The notes beneath the pieces were generated by a model that ran no database searches, was not told where the DNA came from, and saw only the letters and a list, made by a program, of their open reading frames with translations. 64,000 nucleotides of DNA from contig JAHBMJ010000996.1 in assembly GCA_018398765.1 (NCBI GenBank), forward strand, positions 55,201 through 119,200, in the 5' to 3' direction. Of this stretch, positions 184 through 20,940 are shown one piece after another (the first letter of the stretch is position 1; each line of letters starts with the position of its first letter). This DNA comes from Chromera velia (Eukaryota; Sar; Chromeraceae). A program made the position numbers and the translations under genes.

Positions 184-385
184 ACTACCACTTGAAAGTT
201 CGGGCTGCATTTTTGGATAAGCTTGAAAGTCCACGCCGCAGGCACGGATCATTTATGGTGTCTTCAAAGCCAAAGCCGCATATCTGGACGGTGTTTTAAC
301 CGTCTACACCTGCGGTGTAGACGGTTTCTTAAAAAAAAATGCTGCAGATAGAGATGATCTTAATTATATTTTTTCAAGTGGTACT
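184..385. mobile_element. Small TA-flanked inverted-repeat element (MITE-like)
   Basis: The ends read ACTACCACTTGAAA on the left (184-197) and its reverse complement with one mismatch on the right (372-385). Each end is bordered by the dinucleotide TA (182-183 and 386-387). A TA duplication with short terminal inverted repeats is the signature of Tc1/mariner-type non-autonomous elements. There is no coding capacity. Inside, 298-310 and 314-326 form a perfect 13-bp hairpin with a 3-nt loop, followed by a run of nine A. The assignment to Tc1/mariner is inference. Confidence 0.45.
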
Positions 386-429
386 TAGGTTTAGGAAGGT
401 TGTTGAGGGTTAGCATGCGAGAACTAGAC

Positions 430-792
430 GTGATGTTGTATGTTGGAATTGCGGTTGCTCATCTAGCATGTCAGGATTGAGAGTGTGCGCATTGGTACTG
501 CGGCCTGTGCCAGGACGATTTTAAATTATGCGCGCGACCGATCATTTACGGGGTGGTGTTTGAGCCATGCCGAGATTTATTGATTTTTCGCGCCGTACAT
601 GTATTTAGCATCGAATTGGCATGCATCCGTCTATCTATACATGCGTACTGAGATACAGGCATGTGAGATTTCGAGTAGAAGGACTGCTCTTCCACTGAAC
701 ACAGTGCTGCCGCGTACTAGCACAGTGCGGAGACGGTTAGGACATACGTTACAGCTGTCTGAAGTAACGCGATTTCTAAGGTAACACTAATT
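430..792 (+). repeat. 5' terminal direct repeat of the Penelope-like element
   Basis: This 363-bp repeat starts GTGATGTTG and ends CACTAATT. It matches 6317-6679 base for base except for 11 differences counted by eye, about 97% identity. Ten of the eleven are transitions. The repeat does not show the TG...CA ends of classical LTRs. Confidence 0.9.
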
Positions 793-968
793 GTACCTGT
801 TCTCGAGGCGGCGTTTGGCCAAGAACTCGAGATTTTCACGATACACCTATAGGCAAGTGTCTTACCTTCAGGGGCAAGGTGTGGTTTGTTTCGTAAGCAG
901 AACTGTAGGCAGAAAGGTAGACACTCTCCTGGAAGTCCGCTTGAAAGTAGGATCTGTAGCTTTGCACA

Positions 969-1157
969 ATGAGTGGACAGTGGGACGACGAGTTGGGAGC
1001 ACTGCCGGCCATTCCGATGGACAGGGAGGCAGCCCTCCAGATACGTAGGCAGGCGGGTTCCTCGCTGGGAAGGAGAAAGGCAGTTGTGGTGGAGATAAAG
1101 GATGGAGAGAACATGCAGGCGGCGCTGGAGAGGGCAAGGGCGGGGTTGGCGGCATAA
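969..1157 (+). CDS. Short ORF at the 5' end of ORF1 of the Penelope-like element
   Basis: This is a 62-residue reading frame starting MSGQWDDELG, about 175 bases after the 5' terminal repeat. It ends at TAA (1155-1157), and the same frame reopens at once with GTG ATG GAC. It may be a separate leader ORF, or the N-terminus of ORF1 cut off by a recent nonsense change. I recognise no domain. Confidence 0.4.
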   Translation: MSGQWDDELGALPAIPMDREAALQIRRQAGSSLGRRKAVVVEIKDGENMQAALERARAGLAA

Positions 1158-1160
1158 GTG

Positions 1161-2453
1161 ATGGACGTGTACGACTTCCAGGGAGGAGGTGGTGCAAAGA
1201 GCCTGCTCCTGCAGGCGATACCCGAGAACCAGATGAAGCAAATCGAGGCCGTGGATAAGAACTCCCGTCTGCACGAGTTTACGTGCATGGTGGCGAGGTC
1301 TGTTGATGTGAACAAGCTCTGGTACCCGTCCTTTCAGTTCAAACTGGACGGGAGGACCCCAAATCCGGCATACTTGCCCAGACTAGCATTTGTCAGGGAG
1401 GCGGCGATATCCGGGGCTCACTTCGGGTGTGACTTCCTCGATATCCCCTTGAAGGGGCCCTTCAGGGCTTTGAAGAGGGAGATGTACCCGGCAGGAGGGG
1501 TGGGGCAGAAGGAGTTCGAAGGAGCGGTGGAGGCAATGGTGAATGAGATTGGTGGGAAGTACATCAGCTTCCACAGGCTGGTGGACTTCATTTTCATGAT
1601 GCTCCCTAGTGGGAAGTCGGGAAAGAGGATGATTAGGGGGATAGTGAAGGCCTGCAGGACTTCGTCTCCGCTGCAGTTCACAAATCATGTGACTGCATTA
1701 GCGAGACAGTGGGAGCTTCGGGCCCAGGGGACGGGGTCGGGTGGGCTGCCGAGAGGCCTGACACTGACGGCTCCGCTCGGGGGGAGTGTAGAGATGGGCG
1801 TGGGTGGGAGTACAAGTGTAAGTCTGAATCGGGGGAGTCACACAGACATGAGGAAGGGCAGTTCAACAACGATGGCCGTAGCAGCAGCAGCAGGAGGGGG
1901 GGGAGGCCATCTAGTTCCCCCACCAGCAGGTCCTCAGGTGCCTATCGTGATCGTGGGGGAGGACGTGGCCCAGTCGGGCGCAGATCAAGACATGCCACAG
2001 GCAATGGGGGGGGGGAGTATCACGGGGTCGAAGGGATTTGCGGCAGCTGCCGCCGCGCCTGGGGCGAGACCCCTGTCTGCTAAGAGGAGGAGAGAACAAG
2101 CGGATGGAGGGGATGGGGGCGTGAGTGGGGGGGGGAATGGAGGGGGGGCGGTGGATGCGAAGAGCAGAGGGACCGGAGGGGACAGATCGGGGTTTGTCTC
2201 CCCAGTGAACATGACACCTAGGCATGTCGAACAGCCTGGGAATGTACTTCGGGGCTTAGGCCTTGAACCCCCGGGGAGAGGATCCGGTGACAGGATCTCC
2301 TTTAGCAATCTGCTGAAAGAGGCACCGGTGTTCAGGGATGGGGAGATGCAAGCAGTCGTCAAGTCGTCGAAGCTGATAAAAATCGGCATCGAGGGGGTAG
2401 AAGGGAGTATGGCGAGAGGGATCTGGTACAGTTCCTTGCTGACTGCGGGGTAG
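1161..2453 (+). CDS. ORF1 of the Penelope-like element, unknown function
   Basis: An uninterrupted frame of about 430 residues. The first ~190 residues look folded, with mixed hydrophobic and charged sequence. The remainder is low complexity, very rich in glycine, alanine and serine, with several poly-G tracts in the DNA. Position upstream of the endonuclease and RT fits an ORF1 or Gag-like nucleic-acid-binding role, but I see no zinc knuckle or RRM signature, so the function is inferred from position only. The ATG at 1161 is preferred to the GTG at 1158. The frame is intact although the RT of the same copy is broken. Confidence 0.5.
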   Translation: MDVYDFQGGGGAKSLLLQAIPENQMKQIEAVDKNSRLHEFTCMVARSVDVNKLWYPSFQFKLDGRTPNPAYLPRLAFVREAAISGAHFGCDFLDIPLKGPFRALKREMYPAGGVGQKEFEGAVEAMVNEIGGKYISFHRLVDFIFMMLPSGKSGKRMIRGIVKACRTSSPLQFTNHVTALARQWELRAQGTGSGGLPRGLTLTAPLGGSVEMGVGGSTSVSLNRGSHTDMRKGSSTTMAVAAAAGGGGGHLVPPPAGPQVPIVIVGEDVAQSGADQDMPQAMGGGSITGSKGFAAAAAAPGARPLSAKRRREQADGGDGGVSGGGNGGGAVDAKSRGTGGDRSGFVSPVNMTPRHVEQPGNVLRGLGLEPPGRGSGDRISFSNLLKEAPVFRDGEMQAVVKSSKLIKIGIEGVEGSMARGIWYSSLLTAG

Positions 2454-2659
2454 GCAACATTCCAGATGATGCGGACATCCAGGCCCTCGTGTTCGGGGTA
2501 GCGTTGGCCCTATGGAAAGGAAAGGGCGGCCAGGGCGGTGCTTGACTGGAGGATCGGGGTACGATCTCGGAGCGACCTAATTAAGTAAGCTTTGACATAT
2601 CGTTCTCCACAAAAGGGATTAATTCATTCATCGACTGGTTAGAAAGGAAAATTGACTCT

Positions 2660-4801
2660 GTGCGTGATCGGTTGTTGGCTGACAGAGGAGTGAGGGGTTT
2701 TGGGAGAAACGCTGTGACTGGGAGATGCAGAGAGAAAGTATTCAAATGTATGTTAGCGATGGCAGGATTGAGGATGTTTCTTGCTTGTGCCGGGGAACAC
2801 GAAATGCAATCTTGTCCCGTGTGTGGGTCACGAGTCTGTGACTGCGATTGTGCACTCTCCGTCTCGCTGCATATGCATGCTTCGGTTCCGCCATCATACT
2901 CACTCACTATTTCACCCCCGTCTCCACGTAAGAAGGAAGACCCTGCTGCAAGGGAACGCACAGTCTTTAGGGCAGGGGTGAAAAAGAGGGTGTTGCGTCG
3001 GCTCTTGCTTTTGCATTGCATGACAGCAGATTTTTTTCTTGATCTGTCGGATTCAAAGTTTTCTGTCTTTTTGAGGGGCGTCAAGAGGGGCTGCAGGCAG
3101 CACTGGGATCATGCAGACTTCACGGCAAGGAAAGTCATCTATATGGTTTGGTCTCTATGGGTACGTGGGTTTTATTTGGGGAGTTTGGTGGGCTTTGTGA
3201 TGGATAGGTTCATTCAGCATCTTTATGCGGCAGGAAGGGGGGTGGGGGGTAGGGTTAGTGGAAAAAGGAACGCGTCAGGAAGGGGGTATGCACATCGATT
3301 CTACTCAACTCTCTCTGCAAATAACGGGAGGCATGGATTGTTTGTGGTTACGCCACTGGTCGTTGTTGCAGGGTCCCAGATGGAATTGCGATATGCGGAG
3401 ATGGCCTGCATTCGATCGTACATGCCGAAGTGGAATACGGTGGGAGTGAGAAGGAGAGTGAAAGGCGACTTTGGCTGGAGGTTCAAATCTGACTGCATGG
3501 ACAGAGAGGTGACAGGGGGGGTTGGGGGGGATGGGGCTTTGAGGAGGTTGGAAAGGTTGGCTTCTGGACGTAGAGGTGTTTCAATCTGCTCGGACAAGCT
3601 GTCGAAATTCTTTGCGGTTAGGAGGAGGATTACGGTGGCGATGGTGAGCCGAGGAGGGACTGCGTTCTCCCGTGCTGCTTGTTTGTCTGCTGTGGGGGGG
3701 TTTGGGGGTGGGGGGGGGAGTCTACCTACCGGGAATGGGGGGGGGAGAGGTACAATCTCCGTCCCTATGAACACAGCAATCTTTGTTTTCCGCTCGCTTC
3801 TGTTGTCGCTTCTCAGTAAGAAGAGAATGAGTGACAATCAGCTGAGGGCTTTGTCTATTTGTGAGAATGATCTGTTGTCTATCTGTAGCCTGTTTCCTGT
3901 TCGCGGGGTATTAGGGGCGGGGAGGGCGGTTTTTAATACTAATGTGGACAGGTTGTACGAATTGAAAGGGTGGTCCATCAAGAAGATTAAGGATACGAGA
4001 AGTAAAACGTTCCGTTTGCCTCTGGTGGACTTCCCTCCTTTTTCTCGGTTTTATTGGTCAGTAATGAGGGAGTGGTGGAGGAAGGCCAGTATAGGAGGAT
4101 CTTTGGGGGTGGTGGTTTTGCCAGCCTATTTGTGTAATCTACAGCAGGCGCTTAACAATTCCTACTCTGTTTGTGGGGGGGAGGGTGACGACGTAAATGG
4201 GGGGGGAGTGACTGAGGAATCTATAGATACGACGTGCACCGATGGTTCTGCATGCCCATGTCGATCCCTCGGGATTATGTATGGTTTGGACTGCCTTGAT
4301 GGACATGTCTGCTCTCTGCTCTCTCTTTCTCCTCGTCTCCGGTCTGCCCTCTCTCTTCCTTCGAATTTCTCCGCTACTTCTAAGCTATGGCCCGGGTCTG
4401 GGGGGTGGAAAGGGGTGAGGAAGGGTTTGTTGTCTTTTTTATCGTACGTGAATGCACTCAGGGGAGGTCTTGTGGGTCAAGGATGTAGGGGGCGTATGTC
4501 TGTATCTGCTGCTACATGGACAGATCTACAATGTTGTTGGCTCTCCATGTTAGAGGTGTATCGTTTAGGCCCCAAGTTGCCTGAGAAGGGGTCTGCGGTT
4601 GTGAAGGCGATGAAAGCTGCGCTTGTCATTACACCCGTAGATAGAGCTAAGGGCGACTTAGCCTTCCTATGCCGTCGGATGTATATTGCGTGTGTGCGTA
4701 GGGCCTTCCTTGCGGATGCCGCATATGTTCGGCTTACTCCAACACAAATCGCGATCGTGAGTCTCTGTTGTTTGATCCATCTTTGTGGTCTGCCCCAATG
4801 A
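2660..4801 (+). CDS. GIY-YIG endonuclease part of the Penelope-like element
   Basis: This 713-codon frame holds a GIY-YIG nuclease-like domain at about residues 159-261 (3134-3440). The order is VIYMVWS, then GFYLGS, then VMDRFIQHL, and finally a catalytic-type Glu in LRYAEMACIRSYMPKWN. That fits the family pattern GIY, YIG, R..QH and E...I....P.LN. Upstream, around residues 52-64, is a cysteine cluster CPVCGSRVCDCDC that may bind zinc. GIY-YIG enzymes nick DNA, and in Penelope-like elements they are thought to prime target-site reverse transcription. The first codon in the frame is GTG and an ATG follows further in, so the true start is unclear. The C-terminus runs into a frameshift near 4755-4800, beyond which the RT continues in another frame. 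The ~400 residues between the nuclease and the shift are unassigned linker. Confidence 0.65.
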   Translation: MRDRLLADRGVRGFGRNAVTGRCREKVFKCMLAMAGLRMFLACAGEHEMQSCPVCGSRVCDCDCALSVSLHMHASVPPSYSLTISPPSPRKKEDPAARERTVFRAGVKKRVLRRLLLLHCMTADFFLDLSDSKFSVFLRGVKRGCRQHWDHADFTARKVIYMVWSLWVRGFYLGSLVGFVMDRFIQHLYAAGRGVGGRVSGKRNASGRGYAHRFYSTLSANNGRHGLFVVTPLVVVAGSQMELRYAEMACIRSYMPKWNTVGVRRRVKGDFGWRFKSDCMDREVTGGVGGDGALRRLERLASGRRGVSICSDKLSKFFAVRRRITVAMVSRGGTAFSRAACLSAVGGFGGGGGSLPTGNGGGRGTISVPMNTAIFVFRSLLLSLLSKKRMSDNQLRALSICENDLLSICSLFPVRGVLGAGRAVFNTNVDRLYELKGWSIKKIKDTRSKTFRLPLVDFPPFSRFYWSVMREWWRKASIGGSLGVVVLPAYLCNLQQALNNSYSVCGGEGDDVNGGGVTEESIDTTCTDGSACPCRSLGIMYGLDCLDGHVCSLLSLSPRLRSALSLPSNFSATSKLWPGSGGWKGVRKGLLSFLSYVNALRGGLVGQGCRGRMSVSAATWTDLQCCWLSMLEVYRLGPKLPEKGSAVVKAMKAALVITPVDRAKGDLAFLCRRMYIACVRRAFLADAAYVRLTPTQIAIVSLCCLIHLCGLPQ

Positions 4802-6119
4802 AGACATTCATGGTTCAGTTTGCGATTCCTAGCAGAACACGACACGAGTTTGGGACGGGGATTTTATGGCCAAAGAGGAAGTCTTGGGGGTTTGATGGTT
4901 TGGTTGTGGGCGGGTGGGATGCATTGAAATTCAGGCAGTTGGTTTCATATGCAAAGCACTGTTGGAAAGGGGTCTTTTCTTTTTTCTGCAAGGTTCTTAA
5001 CGGACTCTTGAAATTTTTTGCACCACATTGTGATTTGAACTCTGTTTTCCAATTTCAAGAAATGTTGGGTGACTTTAACATTGGGTTTGGACGGGTTGCA
5101 GACAGGGCGTTGTCTATGCGTGCCTTACCAAGCTGGCCGATAGGTTCGGTTGCAATTGCGGTGGATGACATTAAGGCGTACTTTCTGTCTTTACCCTGAG
5201 CTAACTTTTTGTCTTCTCTCGATGCTTTGGTTTGTTTTCTTTCCTCGTCTTCCAGGTATCGTTTTGCTGTGCTGAGAAAGCGGGGGTCTATTTTTATAAA
5301 GAGTGCGGGCCCTGCTGTCGGGGAGGCGTGGCTCACAAGGTGTATGAAGAAGAAACAAGAGGTTTTCCTCTCCACACACGCAAACCACGCACATGCTACC
5401 TCTGTTCCGTTAGTTTGTTGTGTGATTTAATTAGAGTTGACTTTAATTCAAATACTATCCGGGTGTTGGGGGAGAGGGTTGCTCAGGTGGAGGGATTCCC
5501 ACAAGGGAGTCCGTGTTCACCTGGAGGCGTGCGTTTTTATGCTGCATGGAAGGAATGTCAGAAAGCACTCCTCCTGAATGTCACTTCATGGCAGTCCTCT
5601 AGGTGGTTCATGAGGCGATACATGGACGATCGGACGTTGATGGCTCGTTCTGTTGCTCCCGATTTTCTTGGAAACGATCCTTTTATGCTTTCACTACAGC
5701 GCTATGATTTCTACCATGGTACATGTGTTTTGGAGAGACAGTGTGGGAAGGAGGTTTTGGGTCTCTCTCTCTTCACTCTGGAGAGTGCCCCAGAAGTTGT
5801 TCTATTCTCTCCAAAGAATCCGAATAGATCTGTTTTCTCTCCTTTCATTGATGGGTCTTTGGAAACTCCACATGCAAGTGACTTGTCATTATATTCTTTG
5901 GTTTATTTGCGTCCCTGTTTCGTTTATGGGAATGTGTGTGTGGTTAGCCGCTCTGCGTGTTCAGGTCTGATATGCGGGCACGTTATAAGAATGCTGTTAT
6001 CCGCAAATCTACCGACCTGTTTGATGGTAAGGGAGTTGTCATTAATGTTCGTTGAATTGCTGTCCTTGCGATGGCCTTTTAATTTTCTCAAGGAACAATA
6101 TTTGCATATTTTGGTCTGA
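4768..6119 (+). pseudogene. Broken reverse transcriptase of the Penelope-like element
   Basis: RT motifs are spread over two frames. The first block (4768-5199) has RQLVSYAKHCWKGVF, like the conserved R..VS.....LK segment before motif A, and then motif A DDIKAYFLSLP. A TGA at 5197-5199 interrupts it, and the same frame goes on to about 5428 with RYRFAVLRKRGS. The second block, in another frame, carries motif B GFPQGSPCSP (5493-5522) and motif C RRYMDD (5613-5630). The catalytic aspartates of motifs A and C are present. The breaks are one stop and one frameshift between about 5400 and 5450. A pyrimidine tract ending CTTCCAG at 5255 could be an intron acceptor, so splicing around the stop is not excluded. 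The copy is most likely dead. Confidence 0.65.
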
Positions 6120-6316
6120 TTGAAGGATGGTTGAATGAGATTGCGTTTCTGGAGCGCTTTAGGCCAACGATGTATTGAATATGTTTACATGTGTATCTTC
6201 CTTATTTCGATTCTTTTTGTCCTATTGATCTTCGATCGAACGTCTCTTTTACGTAGCACATAGAGCCAGAAACGATAGAAAAAAGACAGTGGCGAGACCG
6301 AAGGGGGGGGTCGCGC

Positions 6317-6679
6317 GTGATGTTGTATGTTGGAATTGCGGTTGCTCGTCTGGCATATCAGGATTAAGAGTGTGCGCATTGGTACTGCGGCCTGTGCCAG
6401 GACGATTTTAAATTATGCGCGCGACCGATCATTCACGGGGTGGTGTTTGAGCCATGCCGAGATTTATTGATCTTTCGCGCCATACATGTATTTGGCATCG
6501 AATTGGCATGCATCCGTCTATCTATACATGCGTACTGAGATACGGGCATGTGAGATTTCGAGTAGAAGGACTGCTCTTCCACTGAACACAGTGCTGCCAC
6601 CTACTAGCACAGTGCGGAGACGGTTAGGACATACGTTACAGCTGTCTGAAGTAACGCGATTTCTAAGGTAACACTAATT
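6317..6679 (+). repeat. 3' terminal direct repeat of the Penelope-like element
   Basis: Second copy of the 363-bp repeat, the same length as 430-792 with 11 substitutions and no indels. It is followed directly by AGAC, the target duplication. About 3% divergence between the two repeats suggests an old insertion if they were identical at integration, which need not hold for Penelope-like elements. Confidence 0.9.
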
Positions 6680-6831
6680 AGACCCTACGTAACCAAACCT
6701 TTAGCTCGGTAGCCTAGTCCTACCTAGTGTGAGGGGCTTGCGCTTGCAATAGATTGGCCGTAATTACCCCCAAGAAGGCTTCTTATGGTTGATCCGGAGC
6801 GGCCGTCAAAGCCTGAGCGCCGAAGGCGCCC

Positions 6832-6996
6832 GGCTGCCAAAGCCCGACCATGCCGAAGGCGCGGCCATACCAAAGCCCGACCGTGCCGAAAGCGTGGCCA
6901 CGCCAAAGCCCAACCGTGCCGAAGGCGCGGCCATGGCAAAGCCCGACCGTGCCGAAGGCGCGGCCATGCCAAAGCCCAACCGTGCCATCCCAAATC
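6832..6996. repeat. 33-bp minisatellite, about five units
   Basis: The unit begins GGCCATGCCAAAGCCC and ends GTGCCGAAGGCGC. Because 33 is a multiple of three, open frames appear on both strands, for example repeats of KARPCRR; these are not convincing genes. The core CCAAAGCCC...GCCGAAGGCGC recurs once near 9805-9846 in a palindromic form. Both sites lie beside a CCCCCAAGAAG-type segment, in opposite orientations. Confidence 0.85.
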
Positions 6997-7683
6997 CCAC
7001 AGCTCTATCAGCTGTTTGCATGCATGTATGCGTTTCGGTGCAAAAGCTGTCTGAAAAACGTCTCGGTCTTCTGGCCTATTACTGTATGTCGGTCCGCTAT
7101 GGTCAGCACCTACTCTTAGGCTGGCGAATTCGGTCTGACCGTGCCTATGTACTTTTCTTTTCCCAAAATGTCCGGTGGGCAACAATACACCCCAAGATGT
7201 TGTTGAGGACATCGCGAGCATATCTGGTGTCAGACTGTGAACGACGTTGCAATTTCTCACACTGCCAGTCACAACGTTCTTATGAGTCCATGATTCATAT
7301 GAACGGCACTGTCAGATTTTTAAGGGTAGAGACTTTTTTGAAGCGTTTGCCAGCTTTGTTCTATCTTTATTTTCTTTTTCACCAGCAGAGGCAATAAACT
7401 GAATGATTGTATTGACTCCAAGACCGGTAAGCTAAAGGAGCCAACCATTACCAACCGATGAAGTGCGATCTTGTTGAGCTGCTGCTAATCTTTTGACACA
7501 GGAATCACTGCAACCAGCACACATGCCTTCAGAAAGAGAAAGCGTGCTGGAGACGGAGATAAACGGGATAAACATGCCTGTGTCTGCCTTTACCTGGCTG
7601 TTCTTGCCTGTGGCTGTGTCTGCGTGCCTGACTACCTGCCTCACAAAATGGCTGTCTGCATATAGCACTTATCGGTCAGGAGG

Positions 7684-8545
7684 GGTTAATGAATGAATGA
7701 ATGGATGGTTGCATGGATGGATGGGTGACTGAATGTCAGGATGTGTGAGTGAGTGAGTGAGTGACTGATCGAGTGAGTGAGTCAGTGAGTGAGTGAGTGA
7801 GTGAGTTGATAAGTGAGTGAAGGTGGGTGAAAGGGCGAGGGAGTGTAGGTCGATGAGTGAGTAAATGAATGTATGAATACATGAATGCATAAATGAATGA
7901 ATGAATGAATGAATGAGTAAATGAGTGAGTGGGTGAGTGAGTAAATGGATGAGTGAGTGACGGTGGTGTGGGAGTGAGTGAGTCAATGAGTGAGCGAGGC
8001 TGCGTGGGTGAGTGGCTGAGTGAGTGAGAGAATGAGGGAGTTAGTGAATGAATAATGAATGAATGAATGGATAAATGAATAAATAAATGAATGAATGTGT
8101 AGGTGAGTGAGCGCGGGTGTCATACTAAGTGCGTAAGTGTGGGAGTGAGTGAAGAAGTGAGTGCCACTGGGCTAGGCCACTGGGTAGGTGAACAAATCAG
8201 TGAGTGAATGAATGATTGGGTGGGTGGGTGGGTGAGTGAGTGAATGGATGGATGATTGAGTGAAGGTGGGTGAAAGAGCTAGTGAGTGCGGGTGGGTGAG
8301 TCAGTGAGTAAATAAGAGCGTTGGTGAATGAGGTAGTTGGTGAATGAATAATGAATGAATGAATGAATGCATGCATGAATGAATGAATGAGTCAGTGAGT
8401 GAGCGTGGGTGAGTGCGTGAGTGTAGGTCCACTGTAGGAGTAAGTGAAAAAGTGAGTGGGTGCTTGAATGAATGAGTGAGTGAGTGAGCTAGTGAGTGAG
8501 TGAGTGAGTGAGTGAGTGGCTAAGTGAGTGAGGGAGTGAGTAAGG
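7684..8545. repeat. Degenerate tetranucleotide tract (GAGT/GAAT)
   Basis: About 860 bp made almost wholly of GTGA, GAGT, GAAT and ATGA units with scattered substitutions. The reading frames inside it (LTHSLTHS-type) are products of the repeat. Confidence 0.9.
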
Positions 8546-10695: not shown

Positions 10696-13600
10696 ATGAG
10701 ATTTTCGGCCCAGCCCCACTTCCTGCCTCTGAGAGAGGGGCAGGGATTTCGAAAATTGTCGCGTTCTTTTTCAGTACTATCAATATATGTTTGCATATTC
10801 ACGTTTCTTTTGTCCGGGTCGACAGCTCTTCAGTCGTCTGTTGATGGCAGCAGCGGAAGGACGGAGAAGACCGCAGAAAGAGAAAAGCACATCGCCTCGG
10901 AGGCATGTGTGACCTCTGCAGAACGCGTTCCCTCCCTTCCAGTGTCAGTAACAGAATGCCAGATTTCTTAAATCCATGGTGGCTCAGTGTCCATTTGTTC
11001 TTTCTCTCTTTCGATCTTCTCGCTTGCTTGCTTGCCTCGTTGCTTTCATTCTTCCGCCCGTCCGTCAGTTCCTTCGTTCTGACTTCCTCCTCTCGAACCT
11101 TTTGTACAGAGTCGATTGTTCCTTCCTCTTTTGTCCATAAGCTCGTCCCCCCCCCGCCCCCCCCCTCTATCTGTGTGTGTGTGTGTGTGTGTGTGTGCGT
11201 GAGTATGTGTGTGTGTTCCATGCGTAATCTCATGCAGGTACGTCATAAACTTGGAGTCTGCCAGCGACCGCTGGTCAGAGTTCAAGAACCGGGAGGTGGA
11301 CGGCCGCTTGGCCGGACAGGGTTTCAACTTCACCCGCGTCAGGGCTGCAGACCCCATAGACGTCTCCTCGCGCACCTACCTGCCTTCCCAAGACTCCCCC
11401 TATCTCTTCCGTCTCCTCTGGCCAGACCGAGAATTCACCCACCCGGCGAAGAACCCAATGACGCTCCCTGAGTATGGGTGCACTTTCTCCCACCTGGTTG
11501 CGATCTGGACAGCGTACAACAACGGCGACGAGGTGGCGATCATGGCCGAGGACGATGCGTCGTTTGAGAATTTGATGATCTTGGCCAAAGCACGCAGACA
11601 GAGTCCAAAGGATACCGTGCTCTCTCTTTTTGAATCCGCCAACAGAGACGCACAAAGCAGAGCCCAAGCATCCAACACGCCTCTGTCAGTGGACCCAGAC
11701 CCCCTCAACGGGTCCCCTCTCCTGTTCCAGTTGTTCTGCTCGTCTCGAGAGCATGACGTCCGAGCTTGGAACATGCTCGAGAATGGCCTGGCAGCCGATT
11801 TGGAGGGAGACGGGAGTTCCGTCCTCTGCCCCACCGACCTGCCCATGGAACAGATGGCAACTTTCTCTCGACGCCCCGCCAGCGAGTGGGCCTGGGGCAC
11901 TGTCGCCTATGTGCTCAATAGAAAGGCAATGGCCCTCCTTCTCGACCGGTAAGTCTGTCTCTCTCGCTGGATGGTGAGTGGGTGGAATGCGAAGCAAAGG
12001 GTGACAGGCGGGGCAGGGTCGGAGGAAGTGGGGGTGTGTGCGTCGTTTTTTTTTTTCCTGCTTCCCCTCTCTCTGAACCCTTCCGTGCTTGTCGCTGGTC
12101 CGCATTCTTCTCGTCACTTCCTTGGTCTTTGGTTTTCGCCCTGTTGATCTGTCGTTCCTGTCTCTCCATGCATGTATAGTTGAATTAATTCTTTTTTGCA
12201 TGGACGCTGCAGGTTTTCGTACCCGGCAGGGGAGGCGAACAGCGCAAGTCAGTCGGCTCTCTCGTCGTGGTCATCTTCTTCTTCTGCCTCTGGGGGGGCG
12301 TTTGGTCCTTCGTATGTGGAGAAACTAGGTGTGGGTGCGGGTGTGGGAGGGGAGGAGAGTGAGAGAGAGACGACACTCAGCAGAGGGGCATCTAGGGGTC
12401 CATCAGAGGACTGGGAGAGGGAGATAGAGAGGGAGACGGAAGGGGATCGGGCTCTTTTGTTCATGGAGACGGGAACAGAAAAGACAGAAGAGGGCGTCTC
12501 TGTGGACATGGTGTCCGAGAGGTATCCCGTCAGCCTGCAGGTCTGTTGGTTTGCACGTCTCTTCTTTCTGTTTTTTGTCCTTCTTCTCTCTGCTGGTTTC
12601 GATTCTTGTTGTTGCCTGTATCTCGCTTCTTGGTGCGAGAATTGAATTGTCAAAGGGCAGGATTTTCGTCTTGTCTAGTCTTTTTTTTTGAACGACGCAT
12701 GAGACTTACTGGAAGCAACACCGAAACGTGTGCTTTCCTTGTAAAACATTCATACTCGCATCTGTCCATGGGTCCATGCTTCTACGTTGGTGTTAGAGCC
12801 TAATAATGTCAGATTGACCATCGCATTCGCTTTCACACAGGGAAATTCTTTTTTGTCTGGATTGAAATGTTCTCGCATTTCTCTCATACAAGCCTTTGCA
12901 AAGTCCGTTCCATAAATCAACGATGTGTGTGCGTGCCTGGTGTGCAAACACAGGAGCCGCAAGACTGGTCCTACTGCGGTCTGCCCGAGGATCGCATCTC
13001 TTTCCTGAAGGACCTCCCTCCGTTGAAGAACCCGAAGGCTGCCCTCCGAGTGATCCCTTACATGAAATTCCAGACAGACTCCAACAACGAGAAGGACAGG
13101 GTCCACGTCGCAGAGTGGACACAGCACGGAGGAGGACGGCCAGGGGGGCCACAGGGAGGGGAGGCGCTTTCTCAAAAGGCCAAAACGAAACAGATCCGGG
13201 AGGTGGGTCTGACACACATACATTACTTTGTTATGTTATTATCTTTCTTTGGGTTCAGATTTTGAAGGGAGGCCCATGAGGAAAGAAAACGACTGCGACG
13301 ATGAGCTGGATTGAGCTCAACAAGCGGATTTCACAGGCACTTTTCGCGCTCTTTCTTTACTGCGGCATAATGATGATACTGCACGCTTTTCAAAAGGTGT
13401 CAACCACAAAGGTAGACAGGACGACAGACAAACAGCCACAAAAAACTATTGAACGATGAACAGCAGCAGCGGTTTGATTGATCTCTCTCCCTTGTCTTCC
13501 AATCTTTGGAGACGATCGGTTCCTTCCTTTCTTTCTTTCTTTCTTTCTTCTTTTCTTTCTTTCTTTCTTTCTTTCTTTCTTTTTTTCTTTCTTTCTTTCT

Positions 13601-17344: not shown

Positions 17345-18320
17345 TATTGATTGATTGATTGATTGATATGTTCCGCCCCAGAGCACTGTCGCCGTTTTGT
17401 CTTATAGAGGTCGACCCCGCAAACGGCAGGGGGGTGTACCTCATCGCTGAGGCTCAGACCACACCCCGTGACCCGCCTGGTTTCCCAGGCCGCTAACAAA
17501 TAACAATTTGTCTGCACTTTGCATGCTTTGGTCTATGGGCTGCTCAGAAGGGACTGCTCCAAAAATCGATCCAATGACACAGGAGGAAAGGACACTTTGG
17601 CTTTATGCACGCCCTCTCTCCATTCTTCTCTCAGCGATTTCTCTTTCTCCCTCCCTCAGCTAGCTGTCTTCCTGCTTCCATTGTGTCTAGGATGGTCTTA
17701 TATTCTTCTTTTCTTCTTTCCGTTCCTCCCTTTCTTTTTATGATCACTCCGTATCTCTGTGCCAGCACTGTTTCATCTAACGAGCTTCTAGGTGCGTACC
17801 TTCCTGGGCTTTCCTTGAACACTCTTCTTCTGAACGCCGCCCTCCCCAGAAACTCATCCACCGCACTATGCCCCTCGTTCATCAAGAATTTGAACAGAAC
17901 CTCAGTGTGCAGTCTTCCTCTTTGTTCTTCTTTTTTCTCTCTGCAAACTTCTCTTACTCTCTTTTCTCTTCCCTCGTTCCAGTCTGCTCCTAATGTTCTA
18001 TACATGTACGCTCTTTCTCTATCATAAATCGGACACTCAGTCAGTATATGGATCTCGTCCTCCAACACCTCTGTTTCCATCCATCCTTTGCAAAAAGGGC
18101 AGAGTCTCTCCTCCAACGGCACTCTCTGCCCTTCTCTTTCTGACACTTTTCCTTTTGTTCCCGCTAACGTCCTATCTCCTACTCTGCAGGCTGCTCTCCT
18201 TCTGTGTTCTCCTCTTAGTGCTACCCTTCTATAACAAAAGGGCACCCGTCCCAGTTTTTCTTTCTCTATTTTCATTCCCTCTCTTAGTCTTTCTTCTGAT
18301 GTCTTTTCAAACAAAATGAG
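17345..18320 (-). mobile_element. 5'-truncated LINE, 3' end with (ATCA)n tail
   Basis: Read on the minus strand, the 3' UTR ends GGGGCGGAACATATCAATCA and continues as ATCA repeats at 17366-17345. The same word, GGCGGAACATATCAATCA, ends another fragment at 62869-62893 on the plus strand. Two insertions sharing a 3' end and tail indicate one LINE family. Only the C-terminal coding part remains (17631-18314). Confidence 0.65.
17631..18314 (-). pseudogene. C-terminal fragment of a LINE ORF2
   Basis: A 227-codon frame with a cysteine-histidine cluster LCPFCKG...EDEIHILTECPIYDRER, the CX2C...HX4C pattern common after the RT of non-LTR elements. It is followed by a basic, charged tail. No RT motifs are present because the copy is 5' truncated at about 18320, where a plus-strand LINE begins. 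Identification rests on the finger pattern and the adjacent 3' tail. Confidence 0.55.
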
Positions 18321-18339
18321 CTACAATCTGTTTTTATTT

Positions 18340-20940
18340 GCTTTTGTTCGGTGTATAGGTGTGATATGGACTTTTCTTCCTTTTCCTCTCTCTCTTCTAT
18401 CTCTCTCTCTCACTCTTCTCTCAATTCTCTTCCCGCAGACCCCCCCCGGCTAGAGCTCACACTAGACTCCCTCCTCCAAGCAGCTCGCTCAGCCGCCCGT
18501 GGCTCTGCACAGGGCATCTCAGGGTGGCGCTACGAACACATCCGCTTCTTTCTCCCTGGTGACGGGTCAGGGGGGGGGGCGGGATCGTGTGCCCTTCTCA
18601 CGGTGGCGCAGTGCCTTGCAGCGGGCAATGCCCCTCCATCCCTCCTCCGCTTGCTAGCAAGCGGGAGGTCTTTTGCCCTTAACAAGGATACGAAAGGAGA
18701 TAAAGTGAGACCAATCACCATCGGGGACGTACTCCGAAGATGGGTGACCAAGGCCATCTTGATTGAGTACGGGGAGAAGTTCGAGGAGCACCTCGGCGCT
18801 CTTCAGTATGCGGTCAGAACTAGCGCAGGGGCAGATAAAATTTTCTGAGCCGTCCAAACCTGCTTGCAGCTCTGTCCTAACTCCATCCTCCTTCAGATAG
18901 ACGCAAACAATGCATTCAACACGTGTGATAGACAGAAAGCGATGGATCAATTGCGGGAGCATTTCCCTGAGCTCTATCGTTTCTTTTCCCTCTGGTATGG
19001 CACCTCTGTCCCCATCTTCTTTCACGATCAGAAAGGCACATTGCGCATGTTCTTGAGTCAAGAGGGGGTACAGCAAGGAGATGTGGCAGGACCGCTTCTT
19101 TTTTGTCTTGGCTTAAAACCGGCACTAGAAAAGTTGCAAAAGAGGCTGCACGAGAAGCACAGGAGGGCGGGATGCTTTATAGGTGCATATATGGATGACC
19201 TCTCCCTCATTTTTCCTTCCAGCTCTGCTGATTGTCTGACCTCTGCCTGGTCAGATTGTGTCGAAATCTTGGGGGAATACGGCTTGACGCTCAATTTGGG
19301 CAAAGATAAGAGTGCAGCCTTCTCTCCCAGTTGGAGGGGGAAAATGGAGAGGGAGATTCCGCAACAACGCCCCCCGGGACTTGAGGTGTCAACAGAGGGC
19401 TACAAACTGATGGGGGCAGCAGGGGGGGGGACACGTTTGTCAACACACTGTTTGAAAAGAAGTTGGGGGAGGCCACTAAGCTTGGAAAGCTGGTGGAAGG
19501 GTACGGGGACCCCCAGGGCTGCAGTCTGCTCTTCAGGTACTGCATCTTCCCTAAACTCGTCTACTTGGCCCGAGTGATGGCAGACAGACTACACAATGAC
19601 GTCTGGGAGCGGGCGGATAAGAAGTTGGGGAACTCTTTTGCCCGCAGTATGCGTCTGACCCCAGAAGAATGGATCCAAAAGAAGGAGCAGATCTATCTCC
19701 CGTTATGCCAGTGGGGGTTAGGAATCCCTTTTTTCCGTCATATCGCGCCGGCAGCACTAGTAGGCTGCGGTGCGCAAACCCTCGCCGCAGTCAGAGGCAA
19801 GCTTACCGATCAAGGTTTTGCAACACCAACACAATCGGATTTTGCCGGCCTGCATTGGGTGAAAAGAGTGGCACAGGCATATACGGACTGCAGAGGGGGG
19901 GTGCAGAGGGAACTCGGACAGAACCACATTCCCCGGGTGTTGCAAAGTGAGTGGGAGGAGAGAATTGATGATTTCCTAATTCATGAGAGGGGGGAGATGC
20001 AGCACTTAATGATTGAAGCCCTCCACCTTGTTCGTAGAGAACAACTTCTGAATATGCTGTCCCCTCCAGGGAAGGCACGTTTGAAGTCTTGTTTAGGCAC
20101 AGGGGCTTCAGCTTGGCTCACTGCGATGCCGTCCTCTGGATGGACAAAAATTTCCCCCACGCTTTTCACCACCACCGTTCGTCTCCGTCTGGGTCTTCCC
20201 ATCCCAGAAATCAAACGGAACCCGATCTGTGCTTGTGGGGCTACGCTGGACCATGAGGGTCAGCATGCACAGACTTGTGGCACGAGGGGGGGAGTATGGT
20301 GGAGACATGAACAGATGAAAGATGCATTTTGCTCTCTTTTGCAGGGGCTCCGTCATTGCTATGTAACAAGGGAGCCAACCTTCAGACAGCTAGGCTTGTT
20401 TACTCCCACCCGTCTCGTCAATGAGAGACAGAAACGTCCCGATTTCCTTGCAGGTCTCCCATCAGGAGACACCGTACTAGGAGACGTCGCAGTGACCCAT
20501 CCATTCTCAATTGATGCCAACCGCCTGCGAAGATTCGCAAAAACAGCAGGGTCGGCAGCAAAGGCGATGGAGAAGGTCAAAAACGACAGGTACGGTGAGA
20601 TCTGTCATGAAATCGGATTTCGGTTTGTTCCTCTTGTGTTTGAGACATATGGGAGACCAGGAGAGGGGACAATTCGTTTTTTGAAAGAGATAGCGAAGTT
20701 GGGGGCCGGAAGAGTGAGAGGAGGAGAGGGAGATGAGGCAGTGCAGACAAGGCTGATGGACCGGTATTATAAAGTTCTTTCCTGCACGCTACAGCGTTTC
20801 GTTGCCGCAAATCTTCTCTGTTCAATTCACAGCAGGAGGGGAACCAGAGGGCCCTTCCAGCCTGAGTGCCTTCTCGGTAGGGAGGTCGCAGCGTTCTCTG
20901 GGTCTTTCGACTCGGAGGGCGTAAACTAAGCGATCCTTTT
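18340..20940 (+). mobile_element. RLE-type LINE copy, 5' truncated
   Basis: It contains RT, a zinc finger and a C-terminal restriction-like endonuclease, the arrangement of R2/NeSL-type non-LTR retrotransposons. The 5' part before the RT fingers is missing. The exact 3' end is not identified; no obvious tail is seen within 300 bp of the stop. It lies head to head with the minus-strand LINE fragment. Confidence 0.75.
18351..20929 (+). pseudogene. RT and restriction-like endonuclease of an RLE LINE, disrupted
   Basis: One protein is spread over two frames. RT finger region: SAQGISGWRYEHIRFF and VRPITIGDVLRRW. Motif A is LLQIDANNAFN with Asp at 18900-18902, motif B is GVQQGDVAGPLLF, and motif C is GAYMDDL at 19182-19202. 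A zinc finger CACGATLDHEGQHAQTC follows at about 20230-20280. The endonuclease shows RPDFLAG, GDVAV, then KVKNDRY and FVPLVFETYG, matching the PD...D.V...K..Y pattern of restriction-like LINE endonucleases. Two lesions are seen: a TGA at 18846-18848, and a shift at a run of nine G (19422-19430), after which the frame resumes with DTFVNTLFEKK. Catalytic residues are otherwise intact, so the copy is fairly young. The G-run shift could also be a sequencing error. Confidence 0.75.

What the first reader, a model, noticed from the sequence alone, without database searches (positions are those of the whole stretch)
430..6679. Penelope-like retroelement with the GIY-YIG nuclease before the RT, bounded by direct repeats
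Seen directly: 363-bp direct repeats with a 4-5 bp flanking duplication; a GIY-YIG motif set (IYM, GFYLGS, R..QH, E...P.WN) at 3134-3440; and downstream RT motifs DIKAYF..LP, GFPQGSPCSP and YMDD. Known: most Penelope-like elements carry GIY-YIG after the RT, while a permuted N-terminal clade exists in green algae, protists and some animals. This copy adds a separate ORF1 and a clean 4-5 bp duplication that looks more LTR-like than Penelope-like.
Basis: partly seen in the sequence, partly recalled or inferred. Interest (0 to 1): 0.75.

Follow-up and report, generated by a model that had tools for sequence, protein, structure and literature searches.

The report
Penelope-type retrotransposon with LTR-like ends
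This is a broken copy of a multi-copy jumping element, probably from an alveolate alga, that carries its DNA-cutting domain in front of its copying enzyme and has direct repeats at both ends, but its copies look inserted the way Penelope elements are rather than as true LTR elements.

Summary
The element runs from 430 to 6678 between repeats of about 363 bp that are 97% identical, with a 5-bp duplication (TAGAC). It has a separate ORF1, and an ORF2 in three broken frames with GIY-YIG motifs before RT motifs A, B and C. The genome holds a large family (137 RT match places, several identity classes). GIY-YIG precedes the RT in all five loci where I read both. Pfam's GIY-YIG model is hit by 11 of 14 stop-free domains (best E 0.0035).

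The LTR-like reading fails across copies. Right ends are fixed to within 7 nt in 39 of 42. Left ends are ragged: 17 of 20 lie at repeat positions 1-40, and 14 further tallied copies start elsewhere. Duplications vary up to 10 bp. One of 40 scored repeats is solo. This is target-primed insertion with pseudo-LTRs, as in Penelope-like elements.

Two things are unusual. Left and right repeats of one copy are sisters in 6 of 10 pairs. The right end falls inside a sequence that is complete only at the left repeat/5'UTR junction. I propose internal initiation followed by an LTR-mediated template jump. The RT's place among PLE RTs was not shown. The host is probably alveolate (Chromera-like), not proven.

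The parts
425..429 (.). left copy of the target-site duplication TAGAC
430..792 (+). left terminal repeat (pseudo-LTR), full length in this copy
   Evidence: 97.0% identical to the right one and its sister in the repeat tree, support 96/87 (bootstrap not settled)
779..798 (+). proposed small hairpin AGGUA-A-CA-CUAAU-UG-UACCU at the left repeat/5'UTR junction; the right ends of copies map into its loop and 3' arm
   Evidence: folding of the region is not better than shuffles (z -1.29), so the hairpin is inferred
969..1157 (+). short 62-aa frame before ORF1 (ORF1a)
   Evidence: matched in other copies, several with a stop inside
1161..2453 (+). ORF1, 430 aa, open in this copy, no known domain
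   Evidence: dN/dS 0.24-0.71 in six pairs of four stop-free copies
2660..4801 (+). ORF2 first frame (713 aa): cysteine-rich N-terminus, GIY-YIG, long linker and the start of the RT region
2813..2851 (+). cysteine cluster CPVC....C.C.C, zinc-finger-like, partly kept in the C180 relative
   Evidence: read by eye, no relevant profile match
3134..3439 (+). GIY-YIG endonuclease domain
   Evidence: 11 of 14 stop-free domains match PF01541; the window's own does not
4768..5199 (+). ORF2 second frame, ends just after RT motif A (DDIKAYFLSLP, 5164-5196)
5232..6119 (+). ORF2 third frame with RT motif B (GFPQGSPCSP, 5493-5522) and motif C (RYMDD, 5616-5630)
6297..6310 (+). conserved purine/G tract just before the right repeat (place of a polypurine tract in LTR elements)
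   Evidence: present, with changes in some, in all 24 right ends printed there
6317..6678 (+). right terminal repeat (pseudo-LTR)
6679..6683 (.). right copy of the target-site duplication TAGAC

Best explanation
It is a decayed copy of a Penelope-like retroelement with the permuted domain order (GIY-YIG before RT) and a separate ORF1. The GIY-YIG domain nicks AT-rich target DNA and the RT starts cDNA synthesis on the nicked strand (target-primed reverse transcription). The start point is internal in the element RNA, at ACACTAA(TTG). The cDNA runs towards the RNA 5' end, which lies at about the first base of the repeat, so copies have a fixed right end, a ragged left end and duplications of variable length. 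The terminal repeat is therefore a pseudo-LTR: the stretch between the RNA 5' end and the internal start site. Shown: domain order, the end statistics, and the sister relation of the two repeats in 6 of 10 copies. Inferred: nuclease and RT activity, the RNA 5' end, and the start site. More tentative (about 0.4): the RT starts at the left repeat/5'UTR junction, copies the repeat to the RNA 5' end, jumps to the 3' repeat and then copies the whole element, so that both repeats come from one template.
For: GIY-YIG before RT in the window copy and diverged relatives. Profile support is modest: PF01541 in 11 of 14 domains, best E 0.0035, several of them near-copies of one subfamily; RVT_1 in 4 of 7 RT rows, best E 0.046. 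Constraint: dN/dS 0.15-0.28 in the five between-subfamily GIY-YIG pairs that could be computed, with dS near saturation. Left junctions: 17 of 20 at repeat positions 1-40, three at 211-271, none running into the 3' body by more than a few bases; 14 more copies start at element positions 344-5687. Right ends: 39 of 42 read lie 0-7 nt past CTAA, their flanks 65% A+T. Duplications: best matches of 2-10 bp in 16 copies, mean 4.9 against 3.1 for mismatched pairs, 0 of 20,000 shuffles as high. Of 40 scored repeat hits, 31 go with element body, 5' region or the C3950 array by position or sequence; of the other nine, eight have element body upstream and one (C537) is solo. Own left and right repeats are sisters in 6 of 10 pairs and share a 3-row clade in a seventh; the left label is not clustered. 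PMC11167929 (abstract and main text read) reports internal initiation in an AC-rich stem loop, AT-rich cleavage and pseudo-LTRs for a purified Penelope-like protein. PMC8969392 (passages) gives 5' truncation and pseudo-LTRs as marks of the order.
Against: The RT could not be placed in a tree. The window's own GIY-YIG and RT frames hit no relevant Pfam family, and the GIY-YIG and RT profiles found no fitting solved structure. No hammerhead ribozyme was found, although PMC11167929 calls one consistent with other PLEs. The left boundary has a hard limit at the repeat start, and a conserved G-rich purine tract precedes the right repeat; both look LTR-like. The junction hairpin region is not more stable than shuffles (z -1.29). 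Three of 10 repeat pairs do not group together. Three of 42 right ends break off before CTAA (C2598, C2220, C2278). Six of 16 copies show a flank match of 3 bp or less, that is, no clear duplication.
Confidence: 0.8

Rival explanations
1. A true LTR retrotransposon that replaced its integrase by a GIY-YIG nuclease: both repeats are made by strong-stop jumps before insertion, and a finished double-stranded DNA is inserted.
For: Terminal repeats of one copy are sisters in 6 of 10 pairs; a G-rich purine tract sits just before the right repeat in all 24 copies printed; the left boundary does not run past the repeat start by more than a few bases in 20 junctions; this copy has a clean 5-bp duplication.
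Against: Left ends are ragged while 39 of 42 right ends are fixed; 14 tallied copies lack the left repeat and start at scattered positions; flank matches vary from 2 to 10 bp; 1 of 40 scored repeats is solo; no CCA-complementary primer site was seen right after the left repeat (by eye); no integrase, protease or RNase H was matched in the four window frames scanned, though Pfam also missed the RT there.
Confidence: 0.07
2. Same element, but the two repeats arise from a circular or tandem multimeric RNA that is copied for more than one lap, as usually supposed for Penelope pseudo-LTRs.
For: PMC11167929 describes tandem genomic copies and multi-copy RNA; two RT matches of like identity lie 5.8 kb apart on C2586; explains why repeats of one copy are sisters.
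Against: A second lap should often run past the repeat start into the 3' body; none of 20 left junctions does by more than a few bases, although truncations elsewhere are spread over the element.
Confidence: 0.3
3. The RT is not of the Penelope/telomerase branch but belongs to another or an unnamed branch that joined a GIY-YIG nuclease independently.
For: RVT_1 is hit only at E about 0.05 while the LINE RT in the same window gives 1.3e-15; the comparison with a recalled PLE RT was inconclusive.
Against: Motif order and the block N.I.V.GK.V.Q.EGFPQGSPCSP..A fit PLE RTs as recalled; the insertion pattern is that of PLEs.
Confidence: 0.15

Closest known systems
Chlamys/Naiad Penelope-like elements (permuted GIY-YIG order; Craig et al. 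2021, msab225, seen only as a cited title; paper not held)
   Same: GIY-YIG N-terminal to the RT; a multi-copy family in a protist genome. What is said of the clade is recalled, apart from the title.
   Different: Probably an alveolate host; separate ORF1; repeats with a hard left limit and sister relation. Whether known Chlamys elements share these could not be checked.
Poseidon PAc of Anolis carolinensis (PMC11167929, abstract and main text read)
   Same: Pseudo-LTRs; GIY-YIG plus RT; AT-rich target; 3' end set by initiation inside the RNA in an AC-rich stem loop.
   Different: GIY-YIG is C-terminal there; it has a hammerhead ribozyme, none found here; its initiation site lies inside the ORF, here at the repeat/5'UTR junction (inferred).
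Penelope families of Adineta vaga (PMC3846280, passages read)
   Same: Direct pseudo-LTRs of about 200 bp; duplications of 8-10 bp or none in the passages; 5'-truncated copies.
   Different: Inverted pseudo-LTRs and tails are described there; none was seen at the ends of the window copy, other copies not tested. In Pen2a the repeat runs into the ORF.
Chlamys PLEs of Ectocarpus (PMC12477816, passages read)
   Same: Permuted-type PLE in the TSAR supergroup.
   Different: Stramenopile host; that paper states PLEs had not been reported in TSAR before.

Membership tests
Penelope-like elements | RT and GIY-YIG nuclease in one protein | tested here: met
   Both in collinear ORF2 pieces; PF01541 in 11 of 14 domains, RVT_1 in 4 of 7 RT rows, best E-values 0.0035 and 0.046. 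No single unbroken frame with both domains was read.
Penelope-like elements | RT groups with PLE/telomerase RTs | tested here: inconclusive
   No reference sequences at hand; a recalled string gives no clear answer
Penelope-like elements | 5' truncation on insertion | tested here: met
   20 left junctions, 18 of them short of full length by at least one base, and 14 further copies starting inside the element
Penelope-like elements | pseudo-LTRs (direct repeat from a truncated second copy) | tested here: met
   Left repeat 5'-truncated in most of the 20 copies, right repeat whole in most; not seen around two diverged copies, whose ends were probably outside the stretch
Penelope-like elements | target-site duplications of variable length | tested here: met
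   2-10 bp best matches in 16 copies, 0 of 20,000 shuffles as high
Penelope-like elements | hammerhead ribozyme in the pseudo-LTR (reported in some PLEs, not a defining feature) | tested here: not met
   No hammerhead match in Rfam at E up to 5 or 10; no core motif by pattern
Chlamys/Naiad clade | GIY-YIG N-terminal to RT | tested here: met
Chlamys/Naiad clade | position in an RT tree | not testable with these tools
   No Chlamys/Naiad sequences at hand; paper not held
LTR retrotransposons | precise ends and constant duplication length | tested here: not met
LTR retrotransposons | integrase, protease, RNase H | tested here: inconclusive
   No Pfam match in the four window frames scanned, but Pfam misses the RT and GIY-YIG there too
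LTR retrotransposons | polypurine tract before the 3' repeat | tested here: inconclusive
   A conserved G-rich tract lies 5 nt before the repeat; function unknown

The most novel reading that the evidence does not exclude
A retroelement that joins target priming to an LTR-style template jump: its GIY-YIG/RT protein primes on nicked DNA, starts inside its own RNA at a site complete only at the left repeat, makes a strong-stop copy of the repeat, and jumps to the 3' repeat. Each insertion thus regenerates two matching terminal repeats without a cytoplasmic DNA stage. This would be a natural intermediate between Penelope and LTR elements and an explanation of how Penelope pseudo-LTRs form.
Probability: 0.3. 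Interest if true: 0.75.

Novelty: new variant of a known kind. Interest (0 to 1): 0.5.

Why it matters
How Penelope elements regenerate their repeats is, to my knowledge, open; PMC11167929 leaves later steps of insertion unvalidated. A large family with many comparable copies, a fixed 3' end, an RNA-5'-end-like left limit and matching repeat pairs makes the question testable largely by sequence. If the host is Chromera, it extends permuted PLEs to alveolates, the relatives of apicomplexan parasites. My searches (top of each listing seen) showed no such report, and the main text of the chromerid genome paper does not contain the word Penelope; its supplementary table of transposons was not seen.

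Tried and rejected
LTR retrotransposon with exchanged integrase: rejected on end statistics. Direct inheritance of left and right repeats as separate lineages: rejected, since left and right rows do not separate in the tree. Hammerhead ribozyme: none found. Single-sequence AlphaFold models of window 3056-3499 and 5232-6116 had mean pLDDT 52.5 and 33.3 and were not used. Searches of solved structures gave no meaningful hit. NCBIfam gave weak single hits of fitting kind: group I intron endonuclease E 0.035, group II RT E 0.025; three of the five proteins had none. PHROGs: best E 0.076, an endonuclease family, in 4 of 14 members. IMG/VR relatives: none confirmed. Host by rRNA or actin: not completed. 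Host by an alveolin-like repeat string: 11 matches, best E 2.7e-13, a repetitive query and so soft.

Rows dropped. The repeat tree (53 rows) left out three short left repeats (C3292, C6, C2412), the C3950 array and the cut right repeat of C2220. The duplication test (16 copies) left out C2685 (contig end), C2598, C2220 and C2278 (right end broken off), C239, and copies with only one end fetched. The right-end tally took 39 copies with the CTAA end; C2598, C2220 and C2278 were left out of the script and are counted here as the three of 42 that lack it. The GIY-YIG alignment left out seven of 21 domains that hold stops. The ORF1 and RT selection tests used stop-free frames only, which favours intact copies. 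The tally of 14 copies starting elsewhere left out C1437 (568) and C2318 (688); its numbers were typed into. Some of the 14 could be later rearrangements: of the eight with flanks tested, three matched at 6 bp or more and four at 3 bp or less.

Full report
What is there. The window's element lies at 430-6678 on the + strand, between repeats at 430-792 and 6317-6678 (97.0% identical over 364 aligned bases), flanked by TAGAC. Inside are a 62-aa frame, ORF1 (1161-2453, 430 aa, open) and ORF2 in three frames (2660-4801, 4768-5199, 5232-6119). The GIY-YIG motifs are at 3134-3439 and RT motifs A, B and C at 5164-5196, 5493-5522 and 5616-5630. This copy is broken as it stands.

Relatives. The genome that holds the window has 177.8 Mb in 4040 contigs. 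The repeat scores in 40 places (40 of 104 candidates scored), the RT half in 137, the ORF2 front in 70 and the 5' region in 32; some copies give several pieces. Relatives at 37-50% protein identity form further groups. GIY-YIG lies before the RT in all five loci where both were read (window, L041, L077, L078, L079). In the 14 stop-free domains aligned, of 21 found, the GIY-YIG motifs are kept, for example Y.GST......R...QH and E...I....P.WNT, with one or two exceptions at near-invariant places.

Domain evidence. Pfam GIY-YIG is hit by 11 of 14 members (best E 0.0035), not by the window's own; many of the 14 belong to one subfamily. RVT_1 is hit by 4 of 7 RT rows (best E 0.046). In the searches that print curated cut-offs the hits are below them. 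So identity rests on motif order, on the same family recurring as top hit, and on constraint: dN/dS 0.15-0.28 in the five between-subfamily GIY-YIG pairs that could be computed, 0.22 for the RT in the one between-subfamily pair not saturated. Within subfamilies values run from 0.36 to 1.38 for GIY-YIG and 0.43 to 0.68 for the RT, as expected of copies that decay. ORF1 gives 0.24-0.71 in six pairs of four stop-free copies. It has no known domain, and no match to it appeared in the 8 kb fetched around the C180 relative, of which only about 1.4 kb lie upstream of ORF2.

Ends. Of 20 left junctions, 17 begin at repeat positions 1-40 and three at 211-271; none runs into the 3' body by more than a few bases. 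Fourteen further copies in the tally begin at element positions 344-5687. Of 42 right ends read, 39 stop 0-7 nt past CTAA, most of these at 0-2 (28 of 39); three (C2598, C2220, C2278) break off earlier. The first ten flanking bases of the 39 are 65% A+T against about 50% in the window. In 16 copies with both ends, the best matching flank words are 2 to 10 bp, mean 4.9. Mismatched pairings give 3.1, and none of 20,000 shuffles reaches the sum. The best are ATGTTTAGAA (10 bp, C3727) and two of 9 bp; six of 16 show 3 bp or less. Of the 40 scored repeat hits, 31 go with element body, a 5' region or the C3950 array by position or sequence. Of the other nine, eight have the conserved body end upstream, and one, C537, is a solo repeat with ATGAA on both sides. 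This asymmetry is that of target-primed reverse transcription and not of LTR elements.

Repeat pairs. In a tree of 53 repeats (17 left, 36 right) the two repeats of one copy are sisters in 6 of 10 pairs (C995, C2713, C89, C3199, C3749, C3727). C2685 lies with its own partner in a 3-row clade, and C1691, C1962 and C2598 do not pair. Support is uneven (bootstrap 86-98, SH-aLRT 74-87 for the six) and the bootstrap had not settled. The left label needs 16 changes against 14.6 in shuffles, so left and right repeats are not separate lineages. By plain identity the own partner is the left repeat's best match in 3 of 10. I conclude that both repeats of an insertion come from one template in most cases.

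Mechanism. PMC11167929 (abstract and main text read) showed for a purified anole Penelope protein that reverse transcription starts inside the RNA, in an AC-rich stem loop not matching the target, that AT-rich DNA is cut, and that RNA beyond the start site is needed. Here the right ends fall in AACACTAATTG, which is complete with its flank TACCTG only at the left repeat/5'UTR junction, since at right ends host DNA follows; C3749 is an exception that runs seven bases on. A small hairpin can form there but is not special in energy (z -1.29 for the region), and its variation among 23 sequences gives no clear covariation by eye. I infer that the RT starts there, copies the repeat to the RNA 5' end, then jumps to the 3' repeat and copies the rest. 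This accounts for fixed right ends, the left limit, 5' truncation and sister repeats at once. A circular or tandem template accounts for the last but not for the left limit.

Known kinds. PMC8969392 (passages) lists 5' truncation and pseudo-LTRs as marks of Penelope-like elements. The permuted order is that of the Chlamys/Naiad clade (Craig et al. 2021, not held, known here by title and by recall). PMC12477816 (passages) reports Chlamys PLEs in Ectocarpus and says that none had been reported in TSAR before. The size is near Chromera velia's 193.66 Mb in 5953 scaffolds (PMC4501334, passages), but neither size nor contig number agrees, so the name is a guess.

Limits. The RT tree was not made. 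Structure models were useless without an alignment.

Noticed in passing
L069-L072 (C3950:101.6-105 kb): Tandem array of about 640-bp units, each the first 530 nt of the element (repeat plus about 167 nt of 5'UTR) followed by a TG-rich spacer; its 3' edge lies about 167 nt past the usual one, as if from a second start site.
   Followed up: partly
window 18300-20926: A broken LINE with RVT_1 at E 1.3e-15 in the middle frame and, by eye, a restriction-like endonuclease (PD..D) motif in the last frame, where Pfam found nothing.
   Followed up: partly
window 6785-7000: Short tandem repeats of 33 bp beside the right end of the element.
   Followed up: no
window 7678-8500: Long run of degenerate GTGA/TGAA-type microsatellite.
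   Followed up: no
G000 C2586, C604 and C737: Two RT matches each; about 5.8 kb apart on C2586 and C604 and 3 kb on C737. C2586's two have like identity and could be a tandem; the others are of unlike identity. Not fetched.
   Followed up: no
L040:5596-6399 and L039:3-1040: Next to other copies: a Gypsy-like integrase-type frame and a PIF1-helicase-like frame, both named by eye.
   Followed up: no
L041:2784-3083 and 3743-4042: An exact repeat of at least 300 nt inside the RT of the C180 copy, next to unread bases; probably an assembly join.
   Followed up: no
window 11203-11949: Probable host gene fragment with a glycosyltransferase family 25 domain, E 9.7e-11.
   Followed up: no
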